Assembly: GCA_022059125.1 (NCBI GenBank)
Contig: JAEUWY010000015.1
Span: 930,001 to 994,000 of the forward strand
Reading direction: 5' to 3'
Length of the DNA stretch: 64,000 bases
DNA from: Corynespora cassiicola
Lineage: Eukaryota; Ascomycota; Dothideomycetes; Pleosporales; Corynesporascaceae
This document shows positions 43,660 through 51,614 of the stretch, piece by piece. Every line of letters starts with the position of its first letter. The first letter of the stretch is position 1. The position numbers were made by a program, and so were the translations under genes. The notes under the pieces were generated by a model. It did no database searches and was not told the origin of the DNA. It saw only the letters and a program-made list of their open reading frames with translations.

Positions 43660-45795
43660 TCAACCTGCCCCAAAATGTGGAATATACCTCGTCCCTGCAG
43701 GTACCTTGTACACATCTTGAGAAAGAAACCACAGATTGCGGAAACACTCAACGAGTACATACACTCTGGCCAAGGGATAGAATAGTATGACCGGCAAGCA
43801 CATTACTAAAGTGCATAACCAACCTAATAAACCCAATAGCGTTAGAATTAATTCCAAAGCTTCACTCAATTTCGTCAAAAGGGAAGAAGAGGTCTTTTTA
43901 CGTCCCAACTCCTCCATGCATATCAGCCACGCAAAACCTATTGAATGGGGGAGGAAATAACCAGGCAGTGGTATAGAGAGAAAGATCGATGAGGCCCTCC
44001 AGATTACCTGCTCTGTGCCATTAGAGAAAGGACAGGTCCATGCTAAGAGATGGAGACTGCCATATAGGCTCATTGCTGCCAAAGTGCCGAGTTTGAGCTT
44101 GAATTTAGAACGGATGTAAACATCGTCGTTAAGTCCATTTTTTGTCATTATTGGGTCTGGGAAACGGTGAAACAGGGCATCAAATACGCCATGCACCCAC
44201 GTCACCCAAAATAAATACCTCAACAAGCCCCTATACTTTCTACCCATATACTTAGTCCACGGGAAATTTTTTTTTTTAATATCCACATATCCATAGATGC
44301 TGTAACAGCTGCGGTCCTTTTTGTCGAAATCTATAGTGTATTGAGAACGCGCAAGTCTGAGACACTCAACGTCGCCGGGGGTAAGAGGCAATAGTATGTT
44401 TTCTAGGTCATATTTCACAACCCGAAAATTATGGCACTCGTTGGTTATTCTGAGCACTGGAAATTCAGTCGGCTGAGAAACACTAAGCGCATTTCCCATT
44501 TCCAGATGGTGAAACTGTCTTGCATAGCTCTCCGTATCAGTAAGAATAACTCCGTCCTTTCCATAATATTCTTCCTTGTCGATTTCAAGGGGAAGAGGGG
44601 GGGTGAGCATTAACGCACACCAAGTTTCCCCTTTTTTTTGTTTGCCTTGGAAATTTGCTTGGCATTTTCGGCGGCATCCAGCAATGCTGTTCATGGTCAT
44701 CCAAGCGCAGAGCTTTGCAACGTCCTCATTGTCTACTGGTATCAACGTTGGTTCGTCAATATCAAGAGGCTTATGCCACCATGCAACGTATATACACAAA
44801 CAGCAAATGGCGTGTGCGAAAGTGTTCATCTCGAGGAGGCTGATTGGGTAGTGCGTGGCTAGACGCCCTATGACCTGAATGCAGAACCAGACTGCCTGGA
44901 GACATACAAGAGTTTTGGCGAGTTCGTTTGCCTTGCTTTTATCTTTGATATTCTCTTCCGATATGTCCGGTATAAGACCACGGCGGGCGAGTTCCAATAG
45001 CCCTCGTTCGGTCAGTGTGAGTCGAGTCCGATTCTCGGGGAGAATGTTGAGCTCCATGCCGCTGGTATCGAATGCAAAACCCCCCATTGAAGCATAGTGG
45101 CTGTGCATTTTGGTCCATGGAAGCACTCTCCTTCGCTGCATTTGTGGCTCGGGGAACTCAGTCGTAGACTTATTTTCGGATTTTTCAACGCGAACTTCTT
45201 GATTACCCTGTCGGCCATTCTCTTCCAGTGATTGTCGGGACTCAGCAGACTCAATAGTAGACCTCGTAGCAGATTCTTGGACATGCCCTTCCCCATCACT
45301 CTGCTGATCGCTGTCATTCTGTGATTGTCTTAACTCAGTGGGCTGAACCGCAGAACTATTATTGGATCCTTGGACGTGTTCTCCTCCGCCATTCTGCTGC
45401 CTGTTACCTTCATGGGAGCCTTCGCCCTGGTCTCCTGGTTGGGTTTCAGGCAAACTTGCACCTGGCTGTGCCTTATATGGTGAATCTTGAGGCAATTCAG
45501 AGTCTAGGATTTCGGACATTTTCAAATGGAGATCCCGAGCGTCATGCCATTGGTAAAAGGCAACACATGCAACCACCTCAGGCATGAAGAGCCCCACAAG
45601 TAGCCAAAGAGTCTTGTTCCATTTCTGCTTAGAAACTTTTCCGTGCTCGGGAACGTTGAGGTGTAAAGAAGTCCAAACACAAAGCACTAGCGTCAGGACG
45701 CAAGTCGACAGAATATTGAATGTTCCTCTCTCGGTGGGTTCCGGTCTCCATATCGCCGTCGAGTTCACGGCGTCAGATCCGAATAGCGCCCACAT
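43660..45795 (-). CDS. Multi-pass membrane protein of unknown function
   Basis: A single exon of 711 residues. Hydrophobic segments: LSTCVLTLVLCVWTSLHL (29-46), LWLLVGLFMPEVVACVAF (63-80), two near 315-365 (VCLQAVWFCIQVIGRL, AHAICCLCIYVAWW) and three or more in the last 150 residues (LGTLAAMSLYGSLHLLAW, ILTLLGLLGWLCTLVMCLP). RGTFNILSTC...VWTSLHLNVP at the N-terminus and CIYVAWWHKPLDIDEPTLIP are a combination seen in a large family of fungal membrane proteins with no known role. Between helices 2 and 3 is a Gln/Glu/Ser-rich loop made of three imperfect 31-residue repeats. No catalytic motif was seen. The ORF is intact, including across a run of T near 44270. Confidence 0.75.
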   Translation of the reverse strand: MWALFGSDAVNSTAIWRPEPTERGTFNILSTCVLTLVLCVWTSLHLNVPEHGKVSKQKWNKTLWLLVGLFMPEVVACVAFYQWHDARDLHLKMSEILDSELPQDSPYKAQPGASLPETQPGDQGEGSHEGNRQQNGGGEHVQGSNNSSAVQPTELRQSQNDSDQQSDGEGHVQESATRSTIESAESRQSLEENGRQGNQEVRVEKSENKSTTEFPEPQMQRRRVLPWTKMHSHYASMGGFAFDTSGMELNILPENRTRLTLTERGLLELARRGLIPDISEENIKDKSKANELAKTLVCLQAVWFCIQVIGRLATHYPISLLEMNTFAHAICCLCIYVAWWHKPLDIDEPTLIPVDNEDVAKLCAWMTMNSIAGCRRKCQANFQGKQKKGETWCALMLTPPLPLEIDKEEYYGKDGVILTDTESYARQFHHLEMGNALSVSQPTEFPVLRITNECHNFRVVKYDLENILLPLTPGDVECLRLARSQYTIDFDKKDRSCYSIYGYVDIKKKNFPWTKYMGRKYRGLLRYLFWVTWVHGVFDALFHRFPDPIMTKNGLNDDVYIRSKFKLKLGTLAAMSLYGSLHLLAWTCPFSNGTEQVIWRASSIFLSIPLPGYFLPHSIGFAWLICMEELGRKKTSSSLLTKLSEALELILTLLGLLGWLCTLVMCLPVILFYPLARVYVLVECFRNLWFLSQDVYKVPAGTRYIPHFGAG
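45127..45402 (-). repeat. Three imperfect 93-bp coding repeats
   Basis: Within the membrane-protein gene, residues 132-223 fall into three units of about 31 residues, with matching positions RQQNGGGEHVQGS, DQQSDGEGHVQES and GRQGNQEVRVEKS, then TELRQSQ, AESRQSL and EPQMQRR. The third copy is the most diverged. Confidence 0.7.
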
Positions 45796-46128: not shown

Positions 46129-49100
46129 TTAAGCTGCCTTTACACACTCTGCCAACGCACCCCATCCATCCTTGGCCCATGGCGCAAGCACAACTGCTCT
46201 CTGCGCATCCTTGACATCGCCCGTGCCAGCAAATGCTTCAGCTAGACCATTCGCACTAAGCGCTCCAGCAGGGGCTACGCTCCTCCTTGCGGTTTCTTTA
46301 GCGAGGGTGGCCGCAAACGCATCTCCGCCAGCCGCATCCGCCAACTCAGCCCAACCGGTGTGCTTCCACGGCGCCAGCATGACTGCGCGCTTTGCCTCAT
46401 TGAGTTCCTCCTCTTCGCCGCCCTGGAATGCTGAGATCGCTTCGATAACCTTTTCGACTTTCGCAACTTGGTCGGCACCAAGCTCCTTATCCATGCGCAG
46501 GGAATTGAGGTCTTCGACCACTGCCTCCATAGTATCGATATCTTCGTCAAGAACTGCCATAGCGCCCAGGAGTGTGACGATTCCAACATGCTTTCCCCAC
46601 TTTTCAACTGCTGCGAAGAGTTGTTCTCTGGCGACCTCCTTCTCGTTCTCACCACCCTTGGCCCACAATACTTCAGCGAGGAGACAGATAATGTCGGGGT
46701 TAGATCCAGTGGCCTCGAGTGAGGTCCGGAAGTACGGGATGCTTGCCTCGATGTCACCACGGTAATAGTGAGCTAGACCAGCGGTCAATCTCGCAGATAG
46801 CCTAGTCTTGGACAAAATCTCCGCTGACATGATGGCCTTGTTAGCCTCCGCATCAAAGTCGGACAGAAGATCAAGAGCAGTCTCCGCTTCCTCCACCGCA
46901 TTCTCATACGATCCAGAAGCTAGCAGGTTTCGCGAGAGGTCCGTCTTTGCCTGAGCGTATCGAGCAAGTGCGGTCAAAGATTCTGACGACTCGTAGTCTT
47001 GCTCCGCGGTTTCACAGATGGAGGACAAAGCATCGATTGCAGAGTCATGGTTCCCGACACGCTCTAGGAACAGTGCAGCCAGATGTTTATGGGATATATC
47101 GTACGGAGCCTGGAAGTTCAACTGATGAAGCGCGAACAAGGGCTGGATCAGATTGGTAATGTTGTTCGAAGCCGATGCAGAGGACACCAGGTGGTCGAAT
47201 GTTGAAACTGAATACTGGCGCTTAGTGAGAAGCGAGGACGAGTCGGAAAGCTCGAACGCATGCGTAAAGTGTGACAGCGCTTCGCTGGCTTCGCCAATGA
47301 GCAGGGCAATGATACCCTCGCCCACCCAGGCTAGAGCATAATCCGGATCGGTTGACTGGGCGCGAGAAAAAGCTTGGTGAGCAAGCTCCTGATCGTTCTG
47401 CAACAAATAGAGGGTTCCGAGATTAGTCCATGCTCTTACGCTTCGCTCATTGAGATGCAAAGATCGCACAAAAGCGTGTTGGGCGACCTTGGGGTTGAGT
47501 GTCGTAGTAATAACACCGAGTGAGTTCCAGAACTCCGAGTTGCCAGCTTCAAGCTCGATCGCACGTTTGAAGCATTTCATCGCGGCTCTGAGATATGTCG
47601 TCAAATTGTGACCCTCGCCAATTTCCTGCTCCAGACATACGTGAGCACGATACTCCGTCCAGCCGAGGTTGTACCAGGCGACTGCCTGGGCGTGAACATC
47701 CCCTGCACAGCTGGCAATTGCCCTCTTTTGCGCTAGAATAGATGCCTTTGAAACGACTGCAGCTGTAGGAGTCTGGGCAGAACCGGCGGAAAGAGATTCC
47801 AACTCTCGAACACCAACACCGTCAATGTCCTTGTGTGCATCATAGTCCAGCGTGACCTCGGATTTGCTTTGCAGAAGCTTTTGGACATCTCCTAGCGGAA
47901 ATTTGTCCAACTTTTCCTGGACCCAGCTGAACAGACTGCATGCATCACCGACAGCCTTCCATAGATTAAAGGCGTCGGGTTTGTACTCGATGATCTCAGA
48001 TGCAACAGCAAGGCCCCTGGCGGCAGAGTCGGCAGCCTCTCCGAAGAAGCCAGTCTCAATGCAGCGCCAGCCCTTCTCCACAAGGGTTTGCAAAAGGGCA
48101 ATGGAAACACCAAACTCTTTGGGTCTCTCGCTCAATACCTCTTCATATCCCTTGATGGCATCGTCAAACTCGCTGAGCTCTCTGTTCACGTTCGCCAACA
48201 TGTACTTTGTGAACCAACTGTCTCCATCAGGCTTGTTCAGAACGACGCCGTCGGTTGGGTTTTCGGCATAATTGAAGGCACGCGCAGCGGAGTTGTATCG
48301 TCCCGAATTGTGATAGCTCTCTCCCAGGCCGACATACGAGTGGTAGTCATTCGGGCTAATCCGCAGGGCTGAAAGGAACGACACAATACTTTTCTGATAC
48401 TCTAGTTTGTTCATCTGGACAACACCAAGGGCAGAGTAAGGCCAGCTGACACCCTTCTTCTTTGACCCAGGTGCTGTGCGGACCTTGCCGGAGTCGACCA
48501 CTCGCTGCGAAACGACTTCAACAATATCCCACTCGCCTTGGTTGGCGAAAAGTCGAGCAAGACGCTCGGCAGCGACGATTTCAGATGGAGACAGCTCAAA
48601 AGCCTTTTGGAAACATTGCCTGGCTCGCTTCCGATCTTTGTTGTAATCTTCGTAAAAGATACCGAGTTTGGTGTATGCCGGTGCAAAGTTGGGGTTTGCC
48701 TTGATCGCAGCGAGGAACTTAGTGTAAGCTCCCTGTCGGTCCTTACGTGCCGCCTTGGAGGGATTCAATTCCCAGATGCAGACACCAATTCTATATAGCG
48801 TTTGTGCACGAAGCTCTCTTCCACGCGGCTTAGAGGCATCCATCTGGGGATAATCGAGGTACTCTTGGAGTCTTGCCAATCCGATCTCATAGTCGCCGCT
48901 GAGTGCTTGGCACCAGGCTGCCTCTGCACCGATGCGTCCATTGGAAGGGTCTTGTTCTAGGGCTTGTTCGAGAAATTCAACGGCTTGAGCGTACTCTTCC
49001 TCCTCCTCGAGAATGAGGCCGATGCCTATCAACGCTGAAGTGAATTGGGGTTTCCGCTGCAGTATTGATTTGAAAATCTCTTTGGCTTCCGGGTGATTCC

Positions 49101-49653
49101 TCGGAGCCTGGTAGTAGACTAGGGATGTGGCCAATGTGCTGCTTAACGCGTCCCGGATTCTGGAAGTGTCAGCCTATGTTTTCCTTTCCTCTCCTTCCCT
49201 TTTGATATTTTCTGTCTTTCTTTTTTGGATAGTGCAACCCAAATGCACATACCGTTGCATCGAGAGATCTGTCTTCTTAGCCTCGGCAGCCGCAAGCTTC
49301 AATCCCTTCCTGGTCGTCTCCACGGCGCTCTCATACTCTTCCAATGAGAGATAGTAGTCTCCAAGTAGGCAGTGGGCGAGTGGGGATTTTTTTGCTTCCA
49401 GTATGCCTTCGGTCATCAGGACTAAACAATCCTCCTGTGACAGCGGCACATCCTGGGTCAAAGCTACCCCGCCCTCGCTCAAATCTGGCGCGTCTCCATC
49501 CTCTTCATGGAGTGGATACTTTGAGATGCCGCTGCTGAGATAGCCAGTAACAACTTTCGACAAGCCCTGTTCCGGGAATAGCTCGACAAACTGCCTCAAG
49601 GTTCGGATATCCAGATCCAGCAGGTCGTGAGCGCTGTCCGCGTGAGACGCCAT
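46129..49653 (-). CDS. SKI3: Ski3 C-terminal part (TPR protein), separated from its N-terminus
   Basis: Two exons, 49653-49253 and 49159-46129, with a 93-nt intron (GTATGT...TTCCAG); 1143 residues. It starts MASHADSAHDLLDLDIRTLR, and from about residue 10 matches the interior of Ski3, not a normal N-terminus (QFVELFPEQGLSKVVTGYL). Many TPR helices follow: EAKEIFKSILQRKPQFTSAL, LGIFYEDYNKDRKRARQCF, AFELSPSEIVAAERLARLFA, AMKCFKRAIELEAGNSEFWN and WTNLGTLYLLQNDQELAHQA. In yeast, Ski3 scaffolds Ski2 and Ski8 and feeds mRNA to the cytoplasmic exosome. Full Ski3 is about 1400 residues; the missing ~290 lie on the opposite strand at 49980-50843. The ATG at 49653 has A at -3. The start TTG used by a longer frame at 49665 is not needed. 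The end of the protein (APWAKDGWGALAECVKAA) is normal. Confidence 0.9.
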
Positions 49654-49979
49654 TCTACAGAACAAGACTCCGGCAATGCAACGATAGCTCTAGGAATATC
49701 GGAATGAAAAGAACCGAACCGCGTGCTGGAACAGAGAAAGGAGGGGGGTGGCGGAGGTAAAGGCGTGGGGGTGGAGGGGAGCGAGGCGTGTTTGTGTCGT
49801 GAGCCTATAGGGCTGAGTTTGGGTTTGCTACTAGCGCGGACGTCATTGCCGCACTTCGACCTCCCCACCATTTCGTCCCTCCGCCGACAACCCAATATTA
49901 CCCGCTCCATGGCGCATATATAGCCGTGCCGTCTCCCACGGCAACCTATACCTAACGAGCACTCTCTCCGCCACCAAGA
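49654..49979. promoter_or_regulatory. Shared promoter between the two SKI3 halves
   Basis: 326 bp between the two ATGs. On the N-terminal side there are CCAAT-like sequence (ACCCAATATT, about 49890), a TATA-like CATATATAG at 49915-49923 and a CRE-like GACGTCAT at 49839-49846. A purine-rich GGAGGGGGGTGGCGGAGG tract (49740-49757) points toward the C-terminal half as a pyrimidine tract on its sense strand. Both genes must use this region. Confidence 0.6.
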
Positions 49980-50843
49980 ATGTCTACGAAAGCCGCCCTC
50001 AAGGCCGCAAAGGCCGCCATCGACGCAAAGAAGTGGGACGAAGCGAAGGAACAGGCCTCCGCAGTCATCGAGAAAGACCCCCAAAACTACTTCGCGAAGC
50101 TTTTCCTAGGCCGTGCAAACGATGCACTGGGCAAATTCGAGGACGCTGCGAAAGCCTACAACGACGCGACCGCCATCAAGCCCGACGACGCGCAGGCATG
50201 GCTTGGCCTGAGGGGCCTGTACGAGAAGCAGGGCCCCGCAAAGGTGGACGAAAACATACACGTGGGCGTGAAGCTGGCGGAGATATACATGAACCTGGAT
50301 GATCTCCACCGGTCGCAATCCGCCATCGACAAGCTCGTCGACCACGCGCGCAGACACGGCGCGAAGACGCAGTACGCGCGCGCCCTGACCACTCAGCTCC
50401 CCGACTCGCCCGTCTACTCTTACCTCGAGGGCCGACTCCCCAACCCTTCCGCTACATATACTCGCATCGCGGAGATACACGAGGAGGAGGAGGCGCAGAT
50501 GATTAAGAAGCAGATCGCCGAGCGCAGGACGCGCATCGGCGCGACGCAGGAGGGCACCACGATACAAGTCAAGAATGAAGTGTATGGGCAGAGCCCGCTG
50601 GAGGATATTTACGAGAGTATCATCAATTGGACAAGCGATGACGAGCTGCGCAGGGAGTATGAGGAGAAGCTGTTGCAACGGGCGTACGACACGTTACTCG
50701 TTCTGCCTGCCGGCAAGAAGGAGGAGAAGAGGGACAAGGTCATGAAGTTAGCGCACGACATGGTCATCATAAAGCATCCCTTCTTCCTTGCCTGGCAGAT
50801 CGAGTTGGAGTGGCGCTCTGGATTGGAAGTCGAAGCATACTAG
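49980..50843 (+). CDS. SKI3: Ski3 N-terminal part (TPR), now a separate gene
   Basis: A single exon of 287 residues. It opens with a normal Ski3 N-terminus: MSTKAALKAAKAAIDAKKWD, a TPR pair through NDATAIKPDDAQAWLGLRGL, LPDSPVYSYLEGRLPNP, ERRTRIGATQEGTT and RDKVMKLAHDMVIIKHP, ending LAWQIELEWRSGLEVEAY-stop. In intact Ski3 the sequence after the AWxIxLEW segment continues straight into a D-LD-(I/V)-x-x-LR helix, which here begins the - strand gene. So the break falls at about residue 280, with only a handful of residues unaccounted for. No good splice donor is seen near the stop, which argues against trans-splicing. The 3' end converges with RSA3, 197 bp away. Confidence 0.9.
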   Translation: MSTKAALKAAKAAIDAKKWDEAKEQASAVIEKDPQNYFAKLFLGRANDALGKFEDAAKAYNDATAIKPDDAQAWLGLRGLYEKQGPAKVDENIHVGVKLAEIYMNLDDLHRSQSAIDKLVDHARRHGAKTQYARALTTQLPDSPVYSYLEGRLPNPSATYTRIAEIHEEEEAQMIKKQIAERRTRIGATQEGTTIQVKNEVYGQSPLEDIYESIINWTSDDELRREYEEKLLQRAYDTLLVLPAGKKEEKRDKVMKLAHDMVIIKHPFFLAWQIELEWRSGLEVEAY

Positions 50844-51040
50844 GCGACATCGTTATGACCATATATGCCACGCGGGCGTTTGGAGCATTTGGGAGATCTA
50901 TACTGCGATTACAAGTGGAAACAGAGGAGGGGTATCTTGAAGTTTTTTTCTTATTACATATTTTTTCCCCTGCGAGATATCCATAGAGCCATTCTAGCTC
51001 GAGAGCAGAAATCTAATGCAATCATGAATGCTAGAATCGA

Positions 51041-51614
51041 TCACGCGCCTGCCGCGCCAACCACCCTCCGCTTCTGCTCCACTGAAAAGATGCCCTCGCC
51101 CTGCCGCAGAGCGTGGATCAGCATGGGCAGGCTGCTGGCCTTGAAGTCGGGCGCCTCGCGCACTTTGTCGAGGTCGTCGCCCAGCTCTGCCGTGATTTTG
51201 CGCAGGTAAATGGGTCCAAAATCTTCTTCATTGACCTGAGACTCTAAATTTCCGGGCTCTGGGGCTGGAGAGGAGTCTGAGTCTGCCATTGAGACATCGC
51301 TGCTGGACACCGGGGCTGCGGCCTTGTCTTTCTTTTCCTTTTTTTCCTTCTTCTCTTTGACAGTCACATCCTTGCCTGGTCAGCAAAGGTATACGGTCAA
51401 TGTAAAATGTGGGTCTTTACATTTTCAACAACCTTCTTCTTGCTCTTCTTAACCTCTACATCACTCTCACTTTCTGATGACGAAGAGACTGTTGGTTGGT
51501 TAGCTTTCTGTGCAAACGCCCGGAAAGATGGATGAGCCTACCCTCCGTCCGTGACTTTCTCTTCTTTGACCTTTTGCGCTTCTCAACGCCATTTGGAGTC
51601 TTTTGTGCTGCCAT
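51041..51614 (-). CDS. RSA3: Ribosome assembly protein 3 (Rsa3)
   Basis: Three exons: 51614-51542, 51488-51421 and 51370-51041, with introns of 53 and 50 nt; 156 residues. The N-terminal half is Lys/Ser/Glu-rich and disordered (KRKRSKKRKSRTE, SSSSESESDVEVKKSKKKV, VKEKKEKKEKKDK), as in nucleolar proteins. The conserved Rsa3 block is at the C-terminus: EEDFGPIYLRKITAELGDDL, DKVREAPDFKASSLPMLIHA and LRQGEGIFSVEQKRRVV. Rsa3 acts in the nucleolus in early 60S subunit assembly with the Dbp6 group in yeast. The last acceptor (GGCAAG) is less typical, but using the nearby CCAG leads to a stop. Confidence 0.88.

What the first reader, a model, noticed from the sequence alone, without database searches (positions are those of the whole stretch)
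46129..50843. SKI3 split into two head-to-head genes by an internal inversion
Seen: a 287-residue + strand ORF ends where Ski3's N-terminal TPR arm would continue, and the - strand gene begins inside Ski3 (DLLDLDIRTLR) and runs 1143 residues to a normal C-terminus. The sum (1430) is the size of a full Ski3. Both parts have ATG, stop and intact coding sequence. Known: Ski3 is a single chain in yeast and other studied fungi. Inference: a single in-place inversion of about 1.2 kb (roughly 49,655 to 50,880) containing promoter plus N-terminal coding sequence of a gene once wholly on the - strand. The product would be a two-chain Ski3, a gene fission by inversion.
Basis: partly seen in the sequence, partly recalled or inferred. 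Interest (0 to 1): 0.92.

Follow-up and report, generated by a model that had tools for sequence, protein, structure and literature searches.

The report
Ancient inversion-split SKI3 gene pair
In a large group of moulds, a core protein of the cell's RNA-disposal machinery appears to be made as two separate chains from two back-to-back genes, since an ancient small DNA inversion cut its gene; this is unexpected because the protein is one chain in yeast, humans and the other fungi looked at.

Summary
The window (Corynespora cassiicola or very near, Pleosporales) carries a 287-aa Ski3 N-terminal gene (+) and, head to head across 326 bp, a two-exon 1143-aa gene (-) for the rest of Ski3. No second copy was found in the 44-Mb genome. 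It is no assembly error: stand-alone N-parts ending at the same place occur in many Pleosporales and in Gloniales and Mytilinidiales; 49 of 120 listed N-hits share a contig length with a C-hit. The closest intact Ski3s found are from other Dothideomycetes; 101 of 120 matched the junction pattern and read through the break. Split and intact sequences separate on one branch (100/99): simplest is one fission, probably over 100 million years old. The halves meet flush (279|280), as one in-place inversion of promoter plus N-terminal coding sequence predicts. Neither half has decayed. The cut frees 14 helices of the N-arm; a helical hairpin stays on the C-chain, before a linker with PDLSEGG (78 of 78 full C-parts, 0 of 120 intact). 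Most likely the chains re-associate in the Ski complex; untested. Orientation in relatives was not read.

The parts
49980..50843 (+). SKI3-N gene: 287 aa, 14 predicted helices of the Ski3 N-terminal arm, contains PF18833 (TPR_22)
46129..49653 (-). SKI3-C gene: 1143 aa, rest of the Ski3 TPR solenoid; exon 1 49253-49653, exon 2 46129-49159
49160..49252 (-). 93-bp GT-AG intron of SKI3-C
   Evidence: the annotated C. cassiicola Philippines protein P0121 is collinear with the spliced product
49654..49979 (.). 326-bp region between the two ATGs, presumed shared divergent promoter (inferred: the ancestral SKI3 promoter carried along in the inversion)
   Evidence: promoter function not tested
50817..50840 (+). 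codons 280-287, new C-terminal tail (SGLEVEAY) of the N-part, low confidence in the model from residue 282
49636..49653 (-). codons 1-6 (MASHAD), new start of the C-part; homology to intact Ski3 resumes at residue 11 by BLAST, at residue 7 counting back without gaps
49534..49608 (-). two-helix hairpin (C-part residues 16-40) left on the C-chain; would be the next helical repeat of the N-arm
   Evidence: C-part model weak overall, pLDDT about 60-83 here
49468..49488 (-). PDLSEGG motif (C-part residues 56-62) in the low-confidence linker: 78 of 78 full-length split C-parts, 0 of 120 intact hits (searched there with the looser pattern [DE]LS[ED]GG)

Best explanation
SKI3 was split once, in the common ancestor of Pleosporales (and most likely of Gloniales and Mytilinidiales too), by an in-place inversion of about 1.2 kb that carried the promoter and the first ~279 codons. 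The inversion left the promoter lying between the two halves, so both could be transcribed at once, divergently; the C-half gained a new start (mostly MASHADSAHD) and the N-half a short new tail. Shown: two complementary intact genes, no intact copy found, the same break across the clade, a tree that needs one change, no decay of either half, an N-part predicted to fold as the Ski3 N-arm. Inferred: the inversion itself; that the two chains assemble non-covalently, with the helical hairpin kept at the start of the C-chain completing the N-arm solenoid in trans; that the Ski complex here is Ski2 : Ski3-N : Ski3-C : 2 Ski8, with the N-arm as a separate and possibly dissociable subunit.
For: Complementary halves: N-part homology ends at R279; C-part homology starts at residue 11 by BLAST and at residue 7 counting back without gaps. 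Shared break: 118 of 120 listed N-hits end 3-15 residues after the conserved ...EW, 92 of the 120 at exactly 9; 78 of 79 C-parts that reach the start have a similar new leader, the 79th being an ORF that starts later. Linkage: 49 of 120 listed N-hits share their longest-contig length with a listed C-hit; five pairs show consecutive locus tags (J4E90_000539/000538, J4E91_001475/001476, ACET3X_001052/001053, J1614_002212/002213, IAQ61_010083/010084). Intact outgroups: 651 hits of which 120 listed, best 66% (Phyllosticta), no name that I know as Pleosporales among those that carry a name; 101 of 120 matched the junction pattern and all of these read through, 19 did not match the pattern and were not examined. 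Trees: N-region, 27 split rows (26 of the 120 hits plus the window) against 49 of the 120 intact, one branch 100/99, in 100% of 200 bootstrap trees; C-region, 16 of 120 against 24 of 120, one branch, SH-aLRT 100. No decay: with 40 of the 49 pairs against 93 of 120 intact, at C identity 0.65-0.70 mean N identity is 0.673 in both. Edges of the break not relaxed: tree-scaled rate split/intact 0.81 for N229-279, 0.98 for C1-38. N-part model pLDDT 91.9, closest fold yeast Ski3. Ski2-type domains present.
Against: No RNA, proteomic or interaction data were available. Orientation and spacing in relatives were not read, so inversion is seen directly only here. The annotated N-part of C. cassiicola Philippines was not among the listed hits (best hit 81%, another genus), so in that strain only the C-part was seen. 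N identity is lower by 0.02-0.05 in the split set in the C-identity bins above 0.70. N141-228 evolves faster in the split clade (split/intact 1.43; N1-90 1.22), a hint of some relaxation or of new roles (45 of 93 intact rows, 10 bootstraps per segment, wide errors). Pairwise identity suggested stronger conservation of C1-38; tree-scaled rates did not. The C-part model is weak (pLDDT 66, pTM 0.35). No inverted repeats lie at the breakpoints. C-parts of Gloniales and Mytilinidiales were not among the 120 listed.
Confidence: 0.8

Rival explanations
1. Head-to-head duplication of SKI3 followed by complementary decay: one copy kept only the N-part, the other only the C-part.
For: A known route to gene fission in general (recalled). 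It gives the same end layout, and the trees do not distinguish it.
Against: Complementary decay would be expected to leave overlap or gaps; here the halves meet within a few residues, and no remnant of the missing parts was found in the genome. Age could have erased remnants.
Confidence: 0.15
2. The N-part no longer works in the Ski complex: Ski3-C alone is the Ski3 of these fungi and the N-part has taken another role.
For: The human N-arm (TPR 1-8) is described as flexible and was left unmodelled in PMC8860381 (passages), so the C-arm can scaffold the complex; the middle of the N-part evolves faster than in intact Ski3.
Against: N-part and C-part appear on one contig in 49 matched cases; the last N-helices and the stranded C-hairpin, the surfaces that would touch, are not relaxed; overall N identity is close to that of intact Ski3.
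Confidence: 0.17
3. The halves are rejoined by RNA trans-splicing into one ordinary Ski3.
For: CTGTAG one base before the C-part ATG could pass for a 3' splice site (sequence, by eye).
Against: Both halves keep their own ATG and stop with similar new coding ends across the clade; by eye no GTAAGT- or GTATGT-like donor follows EWR in the N-part; tails differ in some lineages (EWKDG, EWRMDDR, EWRMVN), so no donor is shared. Not tested with RNA.
Confidence: 0.03
4. Assembly or annotation artefact.
For: None found.
Against: The same split is in records of dozens of other species.
Confidence: 0.01

Closest known systems
Split-Doa10 of Kluyveromyces (PMC3464245; abstract and passages seen)
   Same: A nuclear fungal gene split into two ORFs by a fission dated there to the base of a clade; there the two fragments were shown to assemble into an active enzyme.
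   Different: There the ORFs are collinear with an intervening sequence (508 bp in K. lactis) that acts as promoter for the C-part, and the clade is one genus; here the halves are divergent, the likely cause is inversion, the clade is an order or more, the protein is a TPR scaffold, and assembly has not been shown.
Ski3 / TTC37 (SKI3) of yeast and human (4buj, 7qdr; PMC8860381, passages)
   Same: Sequence of both parts and predicted fold of the N-part; N-arm followed by C-arm scaffold.
   Different: Single chain in yeast and human and in the intact fungal proteins seen here; two chains in Pleosporales.
Frequent intrachromosomal inversions (mesosynteny) in Dothideomycetes (PMC3516569; passages)
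   Same: The mutational process that would produce this.
   Different: It concerns gene order; the passages seen do not mention an inversion inside a gene that makes two working genes.
Split mitochondrial cox2 (PMC5374615; search listings only)
   Same: Natural fission into complementary genes.
   Different: Mitochondrial and, by its title, insertional.

Membership tests
Ski3 (superkiller protein 3 / TTC37) | N-terminal arm homologous to yeast Ski3, with PF18833 | tested here: met
Ski3 (superkiller protein 3 / TTC37) | C-terminal TPR solenoid homologous to yeast and human Ski3 | tested here: met
   (yeast E 3.5e-102; human TTC37 E 9.9e-48)
Ski3 (superkiller protein 3 / TTC37) | single polypeptide | tested here: not met
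Ski3 (superkiller protein 3 / TTC37) | Ski2 partner encoded in the genome | tested here: met
   Ski2_N (PF17911) and DSHCT matches within a 3.8-kb span on contig C2, same strand; the whole gene was not modelled
Ski3 (superkiller protein 3 / TTC37) | assembles with Ski2 and two Ski8 | not testable with these tools
   needs co-purification
Gene fission | outgroups carry the fused gene | tested here: met
Gene fission | halves complementary and both maintained | tested here: met
Gene fission | single origin in a clade | tested here: met
   one change suffices; on subsets of the listed hits
Fission by in-place inversion | halves on opposite strands, head to head, in the window | tested here: met
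Fission by in-place inversion | same divergent orientation in the relatives | not tested
   no fungal DNA collection; scans of viral contigs and genome contigs gave no relative
Naturally split protein that reassembles (split-Doa10 kind) | two transcripts and physical assembly of the two chains | not testable with these tools
   needs RNA-seq and pull-down

The most novel reading that the evidence does not exclude
In Pleosporales and near kin the Ski3 N-arm is a true separate subunit that docks in trans on a hairpin left at the head of Ski3-C, aided by the new PDLSEGG linker motif, and can come and go; the gating arm of the Ski complex would thus be independently made and regulated, from a shared divergent promoter, throughout an order of fungi.
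Probability: 0.35. Interest if true: 0.75.

Novelty: new variant of a known kind. Interest (0 to 1): 0.64.

Why it matters
A core RNA-decay scaffold that is one chain in yeast and human appears to have been two chains, stably, across a whole order of fungi. It is a natural experiment on the N-terminal arm of Ski3, which is present in the yeast crystal structure (4buj matched) but was left unmodelled as flexible in the human structures of PMC8860381. Evolution has marked a cut that is tolerated, kept the two surfaces next to it, and added a conserved linker motif, so the question 'what does the Ski3 N-arm do, and must it be covalently attached' becomes directly testable. It would also be a clear case of a small inversion making two working genes at one stroke because it moved the promoter between the halves, in a group known for frequent inversions (PMC3516569).

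Tried and rejected
Assembly error: rejected by relatives. Intact copy elsewhere: none found. Breakpoint repeats: two short two-copy direct repeats inside the N-part coding region, no inverted repeats. Bacterial-type promoter scan of 49500-50200: none found, and not meaningful for a fungus. Fungal relatives' DNA: viral contigs and genome contigs gave no relative, so orientation in relatives stays untested. Stronger conservation of the hairpin after the break: suggested by pairwise identity, not upheld by tree-scaled rates, so I claim only 'not relaxed'. C-part model too weak for a fold search, which was not run. A paper search on crown ages gave nothing; I use passages of PMC3516569 instead.

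Papers: no paper on a split Ski3 was seen in the listings (1 paper; 20 of 24; 8 of 8; 20 of 575, none with the word Ski3; 20 of 78); titles and abstract starts only were seen there. The library lacks most subscription journals, and a recent paper on the yeast Ski238-Ski7-exosome complex that I recalled was not held. Of PMC11540850 I saw passages and took nothing from it into the argument.
Full report
What is there. On the + strand, 49980-50843 encodes 287 aa with its own ATG and stop. On the - strand, 49653-46129 encodes 1143 aa in two exons around a 93-bp GT-AG intron at 49160-49252. The annotated protein of C. cassiicola Philippines (P0121) has the same length and differs at 5 of 1143 positions, so the window is from C. 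cassiicola or something very near: Pleosporales, Dothideomycetes. The N-part of that strain was not among the listed hits, so the split there is seen only from the C-part. The ATGs are 326 bp apart and the genes diverge. Residues 4-279 of the 287-aa part align to residues 5-292 of a yeast Ski3 chain, and it holds the Pfam domain TPR_22, PF18833; the 1143-aa part matches yeast Ski3 402-1344 and human TTC37. Neither half, nor PF18833, was found a second time in the 44.35-Mb, 23-contig genome. Ski2-type domains are there: PF17911 and a DSHCT domain within a 3.8-kb span on contig C2; the whole gene was not modelled.

It is not an isolated case. A database search with the N-part gave 186 hits, 120 listed, most of them 281-292 aa and the rest largely shorter ORF pieces. 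By my hand count 69 of the 120 carry a species name, 68 of them different: Alternaria, Bipolaris, Pyrenophora, Plenodomus, Didymella, Melanomma, Lophiotrema, Lindgomyces, Delitschia, Sporormia and others, and also Glonium (Gloniales), Lophium and Lepidopterella (Mytilinidiales); Zopfia is incertae sedis. Orders not given with a call are from my own knowledge. The C-part search gave 1543 hits, 120 listed; those that carry a name are, as far as I know, Pleosporales or close to them, with proteins of about 1140 aa, and the others are full proteins or ORF pieces from unnamed sources. 49 of the 120 N-hits share their longest-contig length with a C-hit, and five pairs carry consecutive locus tags. 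Annotators call both halves 'Superkiller protein 3' in Kalmusia sp. and Neocucurbitaria cava.

Where intact Ski3 is found. To reach full-length relatives I searched with the two chains in order, scored on the N-part only (651 hits, 120 listed). The best is 66% identical (Phyllosticta), followed by Macrophomina (Botryosphaeriales) and, by names I know, Dothideales, Trypetheliales, Venturiales, Capnodiales-type fungi, Aspergillus, Penicillium and lichens. A Pleosporales full-length Ski3 would be expected above these at 70-80%; none was listed. 101 of the 120 proteins matched my junction pattern and every one continues through the break; the other 19 did not match the pattern and were not examined.

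The break. N-part homology to Macrophomina ends at R279. C-part homology starts at L11 by BLAST and, counting back without gaps, at residue 7, which equals position 280. So the halves meet flush or within a few residues. In yeast the same spot is T292|D293. 118 of 120 N-hits end 3-15 residues after the conserved ...EW, 92 of them exactly 9 (RSG-EVEAY type); the exceptions are an Alternaria model that ends earlier (P0095) and a sequence that runs on through the break (P0119), which I take for a piece of an intact gene. Of 79 C-parts that reach the start, 78 begin with a similar leader (MASHADSAHD in 44), the other is an ORF that starts later. The tail differs in some lineages (EWKDG, EWRMDDR, EWRMVN, EWGHG).

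One event, old. In a tree of N-regions, 27 split rows (26 of the 120 hits plus the window) and 49 of the 120 intact rows fall on two sides of one branch (100/99; 100% of 200 bootstrap trees). A C-region tree with 16 and 24 rows gives the same (SH-aLRT 100). One change suffices; that does not prove one origin, but the shared break makes it the simplest reading. PMC3516569 (passages) puts the last common ancestor of Dothideomycetes at more than 280 million years and the main Pleosporales radiation at 133-97 million years, so the fission is likely older than about 100 million years. The same paper reports frequent intrachromosomal inversions in this class. I saw no Hysteriales name in my listings, so their state is open.

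Mechanism of the split. A single inversion of [promoter + first ~279 codons] turns one gene into exactly this layout: N-part and C-part divergent, promoter between them. The new tail of the N-part would then come from old upstream DNA, and the C-part needs only a new ATG. Duplication with complementary decay gives the same layout but would rarely leave a flush joint. No inverted repeats remain, which is unsurprising for an old event.

What was kept. In 40 of the 49 matched pairs (those with both parts near full length), N and C identities rise and fall together (r 0.86), and at C identity 0.65-0.70 the mean N identity is 0.673, the same as in 93 of the 120 intact proteins; in higher bins the split set is lower by 0.02-0.05. 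Tree-scaled rates, split relative to 45 of those 93 intact: N1-90 1.22, N91-140 0.87, N141-228 1.43, N229-279 0.81, C1-38 0.98, linker C39-66 0.49, C67-150 0.68, C151-600 0.93, C601-1139 1.15 (10 bootstraps each, several with wide errors). So the edges of the break have not relaxed, while the PF18833 block may have sped up. The linker after the C-part hairpin has a motif, PDLSEGG, in 78 of 78 full-length split C-parts; a looser form is in 0 of the 120 hits.

Structure. The N-part model is confident (pLDDT 91.9): 14 helices, the last ending at residue 281, low confidence from 282; the best PDB matches are the two Ski3 chains of the yeast complex (4buj_F and 4buj_B; TM 0.75 and 0.78). In the C-part model, which is weak overall (pLDDT 66, pTM 0.35), residues 16-40 form a helical hairpin followed by a low-confidence stretch 51-70. 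Fourteen plus two helices is 16, eight pairs, which agrees with the description of the human N-arm as TPR 1-8, flexible and unmodelled (PMC8860381, passages). I infer that the cut frees seven of eight helical pairs of the N-arm and that the eighth, left on the C-chain, is the natural docking site.

How it most likely works. Two mRNAs from a shared divergent promoter, two chains, non-covalent re-association through the cut edge, a Ski complex of five chains. The gene structure and its history rest on sequence and comparison; transcription, docking and function are inferred. Precedent for re-association of a naturally split nuclear fungal protein is split-Doa10 of Kluyveromyces (PMC3464245, abstract and passages), which however is collinear and confined to one genus.

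Novelty. Gene fission is a known kind; an inversion-born, order-wide fission of a core Ski subunit was not seen in the listings and 71 of an open-licence library. I rate it a new variant of a known kind.

Noticed in passing
49468-49488 (-): PDLSEGG is invariant in the Ski3-C linker of the split species aligned, in a stretch that is low-confidence in the model and variable in intact Ski3: a possible short linear binding motif.
   Followed up: partly
51041-51289 (-): Tail-to-tail neighbour of SKI3-N is an RSA3-like ORF (PF14615, ribosome assembly).
   Followed up: no
43660-45795 (-): 711-aa ORF next to SKI3-C with hydrophobic stretches (by eye) and no Pfam match.
   Followed up: no
proteins P0108, P0110, P0113, P0115, P0117: These relatives' N-part ORFs start just before DDAH, which suggests an intron there that the window's N-part (MNLDDLHRSQSA, no break) lacks.
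   Followed up: no
window versus P0121: Five substitutions in 1143 aa against C. cassiicola Philippines, so the window is another strain or a close relative; the N-part of that strain was not among the listed hits.
   Followed up: no
49980-50843 and 46129-49653: Third-position GC differs between the halves (N-part 0.78, C-part 0.57).
   Followed up: no
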